From an uncultured bacterium (lineage in GTDB: Bacteria; Cyanobacteriota; Vampirovibrionia; Gastranaerophilales; Gastranaerophilaceae), in the NCBI GenBank assembly GCA_950022495.1, contig CATLLJ010000006.1:1-64000 (forward strand): a DNA stretch of 64,000 nt, read 5' to 3'. Below are positions 38,212 to 42,234 of this stretch, piece after piece. Below the pieces are notes generated by a model. That model saw only the letters and a list, made by a program, of their open reading frames with translations. It did no database searches and was not told where the DNA came from. The number at the start of each line of letters is the position of its first letter. The first letter of the stretch is position 1. The position numbers and the translations under genes are program-made.

Positions 38212-40350
38212 TTAATGAACCCCTAAATCTGACCACATATCAGCCAAAACCTGCAATTCACGTCTAACCATTCCATCGCCGAGAATCTGGTCAATTGCAT
38301 CTCTATTAACATTAGTTAATTTATAAGAGAACTGTGCACTTCCGTCACCGCCGGCTTTATGTGACAATTCATGTAATGCAGTTTCTAATACATCGCTGAA
38401 TGACGCTCTGTCAAGATAGCCTTTATCAATCCAGAATCCTTTTGATGTAAACTTATCAAGTATTGCTTCAGCAAGAGTGTCTGTGTATAAATGAGATTCG
38501 CCTGCCGCAGTTTTATCGAAAATATAAATTTTAGTATCTAATTCTTCAGTTGAAAAATGACCTTTTTTAACAAGATTTTGTAATTTACTTAAAGCTTCTT
38601 TCAAGATTACAATTTTCTTTGATTGGACTTCTGTCGGAGCTATAGGATTGTGTGCTCTTACTCCGCCCATTAATTGTCCAATAGTCTGCATTCCGAGACT
38701 AGAAAATCCCTCTTTACAAATTACATACCCTTTATCTCTCAGCTCATCAACTAAAGCTTGAGATGATCTAGAATAAGCAACATACTTAGATGGGAAATCA
38801 ATATGTACCGGTTTTGTAGATATCATATATCTTAATTGTGTAATAAAGGATTCTACAAATTCATCCTGAGGTTTCATTTCAGAATAATTTACTTTTTCCC
38901 AATATGGTTCAAATGCCTTTAATAACTTCACACAATCTTCTTTTGGCATTCTATCCTGTGCGGCTAACCAATTGGCAATCTTTCCAAGCTGGCTTCTATT
39001 TAGAGAAGTTCTATCTCTGGATGGATCTAAAACTGAAACAGGTAATTTTTCTTTTAAAAAGATAACAGTATTCTTCAAACCATCGTAATCATTATCAAAT
39101 TCAAAACGCTGACCGGCAATATATATGCCGCCTTTTTCATTAGCAGATAGCATTTTTATACCAACAAGTTCGTTTTCAAAATCAGGTTTGATAAAATGAG
39201 GGTTACCTGAATGATAGAATCTATTAATACTTGCCTTAAATGAATCCAATAAACCTTTATCCCTTGTTTCAAATTCAATAAAGTTACCGTCAAATTTATT
39301 TACTTTATCAAGAGAATACATTAAAACTCTGCTGTCAGATAATTCACTATTACCTAATGAATAAGTCAACTGCCAATTATCAGAAGCATATCTGACATTT
39401 TGAGCACCGCCGTCTTTTAATAATTTCAAAGCAGCCATTTTCAACCCTTCGCCATAGTTACCTGCGGCTCTTACGTCATCTCTTTTGGTAGATTCACCAA
39501 TATACAACGCTTTATCCGCAGTATAGGTGCTCTCGCCTGAAATTCTAACTCTATAGCGGCCGCCTTCAATTGGAGTAAAATCTAATTTTACACCATCAAG
39601 AGTTTGACCGTGTCCATCGTAGAAATTCTGCAAGATATCGCGTGCAATTTTATCATTATTCCATTGTACAGAATCGGCATAACCTTCAGTGATATTAGTT
39701 GCCTGATTTCTAATAGGTGTGAATTCTCTTGATTCAACTTTTCTAACTTGAGTTTCAACAGATTTTGGGATTTCAAATCTAAAACTGCCATCAACACCAA
39801 CTTCCGGAATATTTAAAATGGCATTCATTGCTCTATTATTTGTACCAACATTTTCAGGTAATGGAATTGCGTCGTCAAATTTTACAAAATCACTGCTTGA
39901 AGATGGAGGAACAAGCGTGTCATATTCAATTCGTTTACCATCAATTTTTTGCTTTATTCGAGTCACAAAACTGCTATCAGCATCAGTTGGATTGATATCT
40001 CCATCAAAAATGGTATTTAAACGATTTTTAAAATCCTGAAGTTCTTTTTTTAAAGAGTTATTAAGCTGGGTTAAATCATCATTATATCGTGTCAGTCTTT
40101 TAATCCTGCCGTGTCCTATCAAGGTTCCGCCAATTACAGCAGCAGAAAGAGCAGATGCTGCAGCAATTCCTATTACTTCTTTTTTATTAAAAGTTCTTTC
40201 TTTTTTCTCAGTTTTATTATTTATATCCTCTGTTTTTACAGCAGACTCTTCTGCGTTATCAGTTTTTGAATTTTCGATTTTTTCCTGTTCAGGATTATTA
40301 GATTTAAATGTATACGCATACTTGAAATTGTTTATAGGGGAAATATTCAT
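38212..40350 (-). CDS. GHKL-type ATPase domain fused to HExxH domain, membrane-anchored
   Basis: 712 residues. N-terminal tag-like peptide MNISPINNFKYAYTFKSNN, a charged region, one transmembrane helix at about 59-79, and a coiled coil 84-115. Residues about 230-380 look like a GHKL (Hsp90/histidine kinase/MutL) ATP-binding fold: N-box KIARDILQNFYDG (235-246), GESTKRDDVRAAGNYGEGLK (285-304) as the ATP-lid and G2 box, then strands. Residues 600-712 carry TALHELSHKAGGDG with H660, E661, H664 in zincin order and a preceding FDKTAAGESHLYTD. Both parts look intact. Function unknown; an ATP-gated peptidase is a hypothesis. An AAAGG site lies before the ATG. Downstream neighbour is tRNA-Pro, 131 bases away. 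Confidence 0.65.
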   Translation of the reverse strand: MNISPINNFKYAYTFKSNNPEQEKIENSKTDNAEESAVKTEDINNKTEKKERTFNKKEVIGIAAASALSAAVIGGTLIGHGRIKRLTRYNDDLTQLNNSLKKELQDFKNRLNTIFDGDINPTDADSSFVTRIKQKIDGKRIEYDTLVPPSSSSDFVKFDDAIPLPENVGTNNRAMNAILNIPEVGVDGSFRFEIPKSVETQVRKVESREFTPIRNQATNITEGYADSVQWNNDKIARDILQNFYDGHGQTLDGVKLDFTPIEGGRYRVRISGESTYTADKALYIGESTKRDDVRAAGNYGEGLKMAALKLLKDGGAQNVRYASDNWQLTYSLGNSELSDSRVLMYSLDKVNKFDGNFIEFETRDKGLLDSFKASINRFYHSGNPHFIKPDFENELVGIKMLSANEKGGIYIAGQRFEFDNDYDGLKNTVIFLKEKLPVSVLDPSRDRTSLNRSQLGKIANWLAAQDRMPKEDCVKLLKAFEPYWEKVNYSEMKPQDEFVESFITQLRYMISTKPVHIDFPSKYVAYSRSSQALVDELRDKGYVICKEGFSSLGMQTIGQLMGGVRAHNPIAPTEVQSKKIVILKEALSKLQNLVKKGHFSTEELDTKIYIFDKTAAGESHLYTDTLAEAILDKFTSKGFWIDKGYLDRASFSDVLETALHELSHKAGGDGSAQFSYKLTNVNRDAIDQILGDGMVRRELQVLADMWSDLGVH

Positions 40351-41116: not shown

Positions 41117-41223
41117 TACAGTTATTTTAACGTAAAAATAGTTTATTGAAAATATTTTAAAATTTAGTAAAAATATTTTACTTTTGACTTTGTGTGGTGT
41201 CTACTAGTAATAGGAAAGAAAAA

Positions 41224-42234
41224 ATGCAAGTTCAAAAAATCACAGCAGCCGGAATAAATTATACAGGCAAATTACTAAAAAATAAAAGAGTATTGAAGTG
41301 TTTGGAAAAAATATCCGAACACGGAACATCTTTTTCTGCCGGAACATCGCTACTGCTTTCCTTAACTCTCAGACCTATTTCAATATTTTCAACTCCGGAC
41401 ACTGAAAAAGAAAACAAACAATATGCTGCTGCTAATTCTATTTGTTCAGGGCTGATAAAATTTGGTATGGTAGAAGCAGTTGCACTGCCAATTGAATATG
41501 CAGTCAAAAAAATTGACAAAAATCCTGCTAAATTTTTAAACGCAGAAACTCTAAAAAAACACCCGATAAATTCTAAAAGTTATAAACTTATGACACAGGT
41601 ATTAAAACTAAGCACAGGATTTTTGACAGCAGTTCCAAAATCCATGCTGACACTTGCATTAATTCCAGTAATTATGGATAATCTCTTTTTCAGACACAAA
41701 AAGAACACCCATCAAGAAGAAAAAATCTCAGATATCAAACAACAAAACATCAATTTTACAGGAAGAATTTCTGATAAAATTGCAAAAGGGTTAGGAAAAA
41801 TTCTTGATAATAAATCGTTTCAAAATTTTGCAAAAAAATATGAAAATAAAGATAAAGATGTAGCTAAACATATTACAGCAGGAACCGATATTCTCTTAAC
41901 AACATCTTTTGCCTATCAAACAAACAAAAGCAAAAAAATAAAAGAAAACCGTAAAAAAGCACTTATTTACAATAACATTATCGGCACTGCAATAACTCTA
42001 ATCGGCGGTTATGGAATTGATAATCTGGCGAAAAATAAAACAAATAAATTTATTGAGAAATTCAAAAAAATTAATGCAGGAGATGTAAAATTACAAAAAT
42101 ATATTGAGGGCATAAATATCCTGCGTCCTGCACTGATATTTGCAGGAATTTATTACGGAATATTACCAATAATTTCTACTTACACAGCCGAAAAAGTAGA
42201 TAAGTTTATTGAAAAAAGAAGTAAAAACAATTAG
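41224..42234 (+). CDS. Duplicated membrane protein with N-terminal IN[YF]TG tag
   Basis: 336 residues from the ATG at 41224, which follows AATAGGAAAG; a GTG at 41194 is rejected. The protein is two copies of one module. Copy 1 starts AAGINYTGKLLKNK and has HGTSFSAGTSLLLSLTL, a charged loop and further helices; copy 2 starts near residue 175 with INFTGRISDK and has HITAGTDILLTTSF, a Lys-rich loop and matching helices. The INYTG/INFTG element, which in other proteins here is only N-terminal, recurs at the internal module boundary. Four to six hydrophobic segments in all. Family not recognised. Stop overlaps the convergent punA stop. Confidence 0.6.
   Translation: MQVQKITAAGINYTGKLLKNKRVLKCLEKISEHGTSFSAGTSLLLSLTLRPISIFSTPDTEKENKQYAAANSICSGLIKFGMVEAVALPIEYAVKKIDKNPAKFLNAETLKKHPINSKSYKLMTQVLKLSTGFLTAVPKSMLTLALIPVIMDNLFFRHKKNTHQEEKISDIKQQNINFTGRISDKIAKGLGKILDNKSFQNFAKKYENKDKDVAKHITAGTDILLTTSFAYQTNKSKKIKENRKKALIYNNIIGTAITLIGGYGIDNLAKNKTNKFIEKFKKINAGDVKLQKYIEGINILRPALIFAGIYYGILPIISTYTAEKVDKFIEKRSKNN

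What the first reader, a model, noticed from the sequence alone, without database searches (positions are those of the whole stretch)
38212..40350. GHKL-type ATPase fused to an HExxH motif in a membrane-anchored protein
N-box KIARDILQNFYDG, the GESTK...GNYGEGLK lid, a coiled coil and membrane helix, and a C-terminal HELSH in one 712-residue protein. I do not know a named family with this order. An ATP-switched membrane peptidase, or a stress or defence effector, is possible. The adjacent tRNA-Pro is a common integration spot, but no island boundaries were seen.
Basis: partly seen in the sequence, partly recalled or inferred. Interest (0 to 1): 0.65.

Follow-up and report, generated by a model that had tools for sequence, protein, structure and literature searches.

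The report
Membrane-anchored GHKL-ATPase-fold metalloprotease
A gut bacterium's gene of unknown function encodes a predicted protein-cutting enzyme joined to a molecular-clamp domain and tied to the membrane; it belongs to an unnamed family that is widespread in phages and plasmids, and related bacteria also use the same unit as interchangeable cargo at the end of giant proteins.

Summary
The ORF is real, and the finding holds in substance. AlphaFold2 places residues ~219-491 in a GHKL + S5-transducer fold (Z 12-13 to TopoVI-B, GyrB, MORC2, TRAP1) and residues 566-712 in a Wss1/WLM-type zincin fold (Z 9.7 to Wss1). H660, E661, H664 and a candidate third ligand, D669, are invariant in 55 of 55 homologues, as are N242, the GxxGEG lid and R445/R447. 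All 44 full-length stand-alone members have an N-terminal hydrophobic segment. It is not an orphan: profile alignments over ~418 columns (E 1e-21, 1e-19) join it to an unnamed family of ~440-480-residue GHKL-zincin proteins in phages, plasmids and haloarchaea, one inside a type I restriction operon and two beside ShosA/DprA-like genes. In Gastranaerophilales the module also ends giant proteins (1.5-4.4 kaa) as a tandem pair, the second with a broken HExxH in 12 of 12; the giants' scaffolds recur with other C-termini. Cautions: the catalytic Glu is Asp (D238) and the adenine-binding Asp of the G1 box is gone, so an ATP switch is inferred. Best reading: nucleotide-gated, membrane-tethered Wss1-like protease, probably from genetic-conflict stock. 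Substrate unknown. The tRNA-Pro is incidental.

The parts
38212..40350 (-). 712-residue ORF, GHKL-S5-zincin protein
   Evidence: homologues
40117..40179 (-). N-terminal hydrophobic segment (residues 58-78), predicted membrane anchor
   Evidence: KD19 1.95 at 60-78; all 44 full-length stand-alone homologues have one above 1.4
40003..40113 (-). long helix, probable coiled coil (residues 80-116)
   Evidence: AF2 secondary structure
39220..39696 (-). GHKL fold (about residues 219-377)
   Evidence: AF2 plus VIA-align Z 12-13 to TopoVI-B, GyrB, MORC2, TRAP1
39625..39639 (-). N-box D238-x-x-x-N242; Asp replaces the usual catalytic Glu
   Evidence: 55 of 55 D and N; relatives outside the branch: 45 Glu, 0 Asp, 7 unassigned of 52
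39439..39498 (-). G2 box/ATP lid, G285-E-S-T-K289 ... G297-N-Y-G-E-G-L-K304
   Evidence: G285, G297, G300, E301, G302 invariant; K304 51 of 55
38875..39219 (-). S5-type transducer region (residues 378-492)
   Evidence: VIA-align range 219-491
39010..39018 (-). R445-D-R447, candidate basic finger of the transducer
   Evidence: R445 and R447 55 of 55; R-D/E-R conserved in the wide family
38656..38808 (-). linker domain (residues 515-565), partly shared with phage relatives
   Evidence: hhalign covers it
38215..38655 (-). C-terminal zincin domain (residues 566-712)
   Evidence: AF2 pLDDT 94; Wss1 Z 9.7, 2.7 A, 108 residues
38359..38373 (-). HELSH (660-664), zinc-binding and catalytic motif
   Evidence: H660, E661, H664 in 55 of 55
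38344..38346 (-). D669, candidate third zinc ligand
   Evidence: 55 of 55; invariant Asp also in the wide family and HExxHxxGxDG motif in viral members

Best explanation
A membrane-tethered metalloprotease whose Wss1/SPRTN-like zincin domain is gated by a GHKL-S5 module. Shown by computation: the folds, the conserved zinc motif, the hydrophobic anchor, and homology over the whole soluble part to phage and plasmid GHKL-zincin proteins. Inferred: nucleotide binding closes a GHKL dimer, held near the membrane by the coiled coil, and this opens or positions the zincin so that it cuts a partner protein. The giants, with one intact and one broken zincin in tandem, look like the same dimer written into one chain. 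The family most likely comes from phage/plasmid conflict stock (defence, counter-defence or toxin-like effectors); in Gastranaerophilales it is an accessory gene.
For: Fold of both halves. Invariant HExxH and D669. Full-length profile match to Firmicute/actinobacterial/alphaproteobacterial/Rhodothermota plasmid and phage proteins, prob 99.4, E 9.5e-22, and to viral-contig proteins, prob 99.2, E 1.1e-19. 27 of 36 related viral contigs keep a C-terminal HExxH. Contexts: Salinibacter hsdM-hsdS-[gene]-hsdR; DprA-like neighbours in Streptomyces and Euzebya that match ShosA, E 1e-25 and 1e-44; Piwi and phospholipase D proteins near the Natrinema copy. Tandem intact/broken zincin pair in 12 of 12 giants. 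Giant scaffolds with other C-termini. Hydrophobic segment in 44 of 44.
Against: The catalytic Glu is Asp in the whole branch and the G1 Asp is lost, so ATP hydrolysis, and even ATP specificity, are uncertain. Dimerisation and gating are by analogy. PADLOC has no model for these proteins. The window gene sits among housekeeping-looking genes (AMP-binding enzyme, PnuC-like, nucleoside phosphorylase-like, by eye), not in a defence island, and has no constant partner. Membrane topology is not settled.
Confidence: 0.55

Rival explanations
1. The GHKL half no longer hydrolyses or binds ATP; it is a structural dimerisation or ligand-sensing scaffold, and the protease is constitutive or controlled by another ligand.
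For: D238 replaces Glu in 55 of 55, and the G1 Asp is absent; a large phage subgroup also lacks DxGxG.
Against: N242, the GxxGEG lid and R445/R447 are invariant, which is hard to explain without a phosphate ligand.
Confidence: 0.25
2. Chaperone or clamp without proteolysis: the zincin fold is a binding scaffold (pseudo-protease).
For: Second modules of the giants, and deep relatives L126 and L132, keep the region while HExxH is broken.
Against: HExxH plus D669 invariant in 55 of 55 stand-alone and first modules, and most viral relatives keep it.
Confidence: 0.1
3. DNA-linked clamp protease: the GHKL-S5 module embraces DNA as MORC or TopoVI does, and the Wss1-like domain removes proteins bound to it.
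For: Closest folds are DNA-acting GHKL proteins and the DNA-protein-crosslink protease Wss1; relatives in an RM operon, near SbcCD and beside DprA-like genes.
Against: No DNA-binding element was identified; the window protein is membrane-anchored; GHKL folds also serve Hsp90 and kinases.
Confidence: 0.15

Closest known systems
phrog_6077 and short phage GHKL proteins (PaMx11, ABPH49, phiTE), one annotated RIIA lysis inhibitor
   Same: GHKL core, lid, missing G1 Asp, R-D-R motif, roughly residues 217-575
   Different: no zincin, Glu in the N-box
Unnamed GHKL-zincin 'ATP-binding protein' family (Moorella phage MTATph1, Exiguobacterium phage vB_EalM-132, Salinibacter pSR56, Euzebya, haloarchaeal plasmids)
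   Same: same order of GHKL, S5, linker, zincin; E 9.5e-22 over 418 columns
   Different: start almost at the GHKL domain, with no N-terminal anchor or coiled coil; Glu in the N-box; many keep DxGxG; HExxH-to-Asp spacing two residues longer in part of the family
Wss1/WLM and SPRTN proteases
   Same: zincin fold, Z 9.7 (Wss1) and 6.0 (DPC-repair protease 6mdx); HExxH helix, then ligand loop, then F
   Different: third ligand is apparently Asp, not His; below the Pfam WLM cut-off; joined to GHKL
MORC/paraMORC (Iyer 2008, PMC2292703)
   Same: GHKL plus S5; RM context for one relative
   Different: the paper describes nuclease, TIR and HxH extensions and no peptidase (term search); motif residues differ here
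T4-type RIIA proteins
   Same: N-terminal GHKL with variable C-terminal domain (PMC7824862); Foldseek matches in BFVD
   Different: matches have low TM-scores; whether any RIIA carries a zincin was not examined

Membership tests
GHKL ATPase superfamily | GHKL fold | tested here: met
   Z 12-13, 3.4-5.4 A over 215-247 residues; Foldseek E 1.7e-4
GHKL ATPase superfamily | N-box Glu and Asn | tested here: not met
   Asn242 met, but Glu is Asp238 in 55 of 55
GHKL ATPase superfamily | G1 box DxGxG | tested here: not met
   position 271 varies, 272 is Gly; also absent in 30 of 52 relatives by a simple regex
GHKL ATPase superfamily | G2 lid (GxxGxG) | tested here: met
   G297, G300, E301, G302 invariant
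GHKL ATPase superfamily | ATP binding and hydrolysis | not testable with these tools
   needs biochemistry
Zincin metallopeptidases (HExxH) | HExxH on a helix of a zincin fold | tested here: met
WLM/Wss1 proteases (PF08325) | curated Pfam score | tested here: not met
   16.6 bits against cut-off 26
WLM/Wss1 proteases (PF08325) | third ligand His | tested here: not met
   Asp669 at the nearest equivalent position; no conserved His there
Unnamed GHKL-zincin family of phages/plasmids | homology over GHKL, S5, linker and zincin | tested here: met
   hhalign
MORC/paraMORC | MORC-specific GhXhhpXXRhl motif in S5 (PMC2292703) | not tested
   motif not searched
Known anti-phage defence systems (PADLOC) | match to a PADLOC model | tested here: not met
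   0 families

The most novel reading that the evidence does not exclude
A conserved, unnamed class of DNA- or partner-embracing GHKL clamps with a built-in Wss1-like protease, spread by phages and plasmids as a conflict module, and adopted by gut Melainabacteria both as a membrane-tethered enzyme and as the C-terminal cargo of giant polymorphic effectors that carry an active/inactive protease pair in one chain.
Probability: 0.25. Interest if true: 0.8.

Novelty: new variant of a known kind. Interest (0 to 1): 0.58.

Why it matters
No paper in the held library that I found describes GHKL-zincin fusions, and the zincin half scores below every Pfam cut-off; members are annotated only as hypothetical or 'ATP-binding protein'. 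If proteolysis under nucleotide control is shown, it would define a new class of regulated protease across phages, plasmids, archaea and gut bacteria, and would give a testable function to many phage GHKL proteins.

Tried and rejected
Mobile element at tRNA-Pro: rejected, (members with like neighbours mostly cluster in the tree, so the gene is mostly inherited in place within groups). Pfam/NCBIfam/PADLOC naming: nothing above cut-off. PDB by sequence: only weak Wss1. Plasmid search with the window protein: none; it needed the deep relative L126. N-terminal motif NF[QK][AGS] as a general sorting signal: no overall enrichment in 612 ORFs. Literature searches for GHKL with zincin, metallopeptidase or WLM: no description of the fusion. 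E-values in local scans against a handful of sequences are not database E-values. The regex count of motifs is rough (7 of 52 N-boxes unassigned). Process note: while thinking I wrote out a T4 RIIA protein sequence from memory, which the rules forbid; it was used in no tool call and no conclusion rests on it.

Full report
OBSERVATION. It occurs once in its genome. Homologues: 28 of 147 relatives, 52 of 386 genomes in the phylum, nearly all in one family, and 67 loci in the genome collection, the named ones mostly Gastranaerophilales/Melainabacteria. So it is an accessory, patchy gene.

FOLDS. AlphaFold2 on a 55-sequence alignment (mean pLDDT 81, residues 1-80 of low confidence) gives a GHKL + S5-transducer region, Z 12-13 against topoisomerase VI-B, gyrase B, MORC2 and TRAP1. 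The C-terminal domain modelled alone (pLDDT 94) matches Wss1 of budding yeast at Z 9.7, 2.7 A over 108 residues, then S. pombe Wss1 at 8.8 and 8.1; selecase, aspzincins and a SPRTN-type protease follow at 6-7. Foldseek E-values for this domain are weak (0.01-0.4 for the top matches), so the Wss1 link rests on the Z-scores, the HExxH motif, and weak but repeated WLM sequence matches (29 of 55 members, best E 0.0017).

CONSERVATION. In 55 of 55 homologues W230, R237, D238, Q241, N242, G272, G285, G297, G300-G302, W326, R445, R447, W640, H660, E661, H664, D669, F674 and L678 are identical. The invariant D669 after HExxH is the best candidate for a third zinc ligand; the wide family has an invariant Asp there too, and many viral relatives carry HExxHxxGxDG. 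No zinc was modelled, so this is inference.

THE ATPASE HALF IS UNUSUAL. The usual catalytic Glu of the N-box is Asp238 throughout, whereas 45 of 52 relatives outside this branch have Glu and none Asp (7 unassigned). The G1-box Asp that contacts adenine is not conserved, as in a large phage subgroup. Asn242, the lid and the R-D-R transducer motif remain. ATP binding or hydrolysis is therefore plausible but not shown, and nucleotide specificity may differ.

A WIDE, UNNAMED FAMILY. Deep relatives led to plasmid and phage proteins annotated 'ATP-binding protein' or hypothetical: Moorella phage MTATph1 (446 aa), Exiguobacterium phage vB_EalM-132 (437 aa), Salinibacter pSR56 (480), Croceicoccus (482), Euzebya (466), haloarchaeal plasmids (464), and multi-GHKL versions in Alkaliphilus (1104) and Aneurinibacillus (958). 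Profile-profile alignment covers GHKL, S5, linker and zincin together: E 9.5e-22, 418 columns; zincin alone 9.5e-9; viral-contig group 1.1e-19, 417 columns. Of 36 viral contigs found with the wide family, 27 keep a C-terminal HExxH. Shorter phage proteins (360-400 aa, PaMx11, ABPH49, phiTE; phrog_6077) have the ATPase core only. Contexts: hsdM-hsdS-[gene]-hsdR-SprT on pSR56; directly after DprA-like genes in Streptomyces and Euzebya plasmids, whose products match the ShosA model at 1.3e-25 and 1.5e-44; near SbcCD/CoiA and Piwi/PLD genes. These are single examples, not a statistical survey.

GIANT PROTEINS. In many Gastranaerophilales the module sits at the C-terminal end of proteins of 1.5-4.4 kaa, in tandem. 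In 12 of 12 examined, the first module keeps H-E-H-D and the second has lost HExxH, while D238, N242 and the GEG lid stay in both; R445 is Cys in some second modules. N-terminal scaffolds of these giants (weak EF-hand or LysM matches) recur at 32-60% identity in proteins that lack the GHKL-zincin module and have other C-termini, some with an HD domain. This is the pattern of an interchangeable cargo, as in polymorphic effectors; secretion is not shown.

NEIGHBOURHOOD. Stand-alone genes have no constant partner. Genes with the same neighbours mostly group in the tree, with exceptions such as the AMP-binding site of the window, whose members do not form one clade. The tRNA-Pro is near the gene only in a few loci.

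MECHANISM. Shown by computation: folds, conserved zinc motif, hydrophobic segment (44 of 44). Inferred: nucleotide-driven dimer closing gates the zincin; the tandem giants are a dimer in one chain. The soluble domain should face the cytoplasm if ATP is the ligand; topology was not determined. Substrate unknown. Confidence in the architecture about 0.95, in regulated proteolysis about 0.55, in a conflict role about 0.4.

KNOWN OR NEW. Parts are known (GHKL-S5; Wss1-type zincin). The combination has no name in Pfam, NCBIfam or PADLOC and no function in PHROGs, and literature searches found no description (Iyer 2008 read by term search). The window protein is a membrane-anchored variant of this unnamed family.

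Noticed in passing
L096, L094, L092, L085, L100, L031 and others: Giant proteins of 1.5-4.4 kaa with tandem GHKL-zincin modules, second HExxH broken in 12 of 12.
   Followed up: yes
L156, L157, L158, L159: Same giant scaffolds with other C-termini; HD domain in L156 and L157 by Pfam; the C-terminus of L158 looks RelA/SpoT-like by eye only.
   Followed up: partly
window 38212-40350 N-terminus and window 41194-42234: Shared N-terminal motif of the type M-x-[IV]...[NV][FY]x[AGS] in stand-alone members and an unrelated neighbour; possible lineage-specific sorting signal, not enriched overall.
   Followed up: partly
L145:4903-5889 and L143:4885-5730: ShosA/DprA-like genes directly upstream of GHKL-zincin genes in Euzebya and Streptomyces plasmids: possible two-gene conflict system.
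   Followed up: partly
L027 (906 aa): Distant relative with GHKL, then a hydrophobic segment, then a WLM-like domain (E 0.0013) with HEIGH...GHDTKF, a candidate canonical third His.
   Followed up: partly
downstream of giants in L088/L090, L089/L093, L094/L095: Small recurring ORFs (clusters c117, c118, c119) right after or near giants; possible partner or immunity genes.
   Followed up: no
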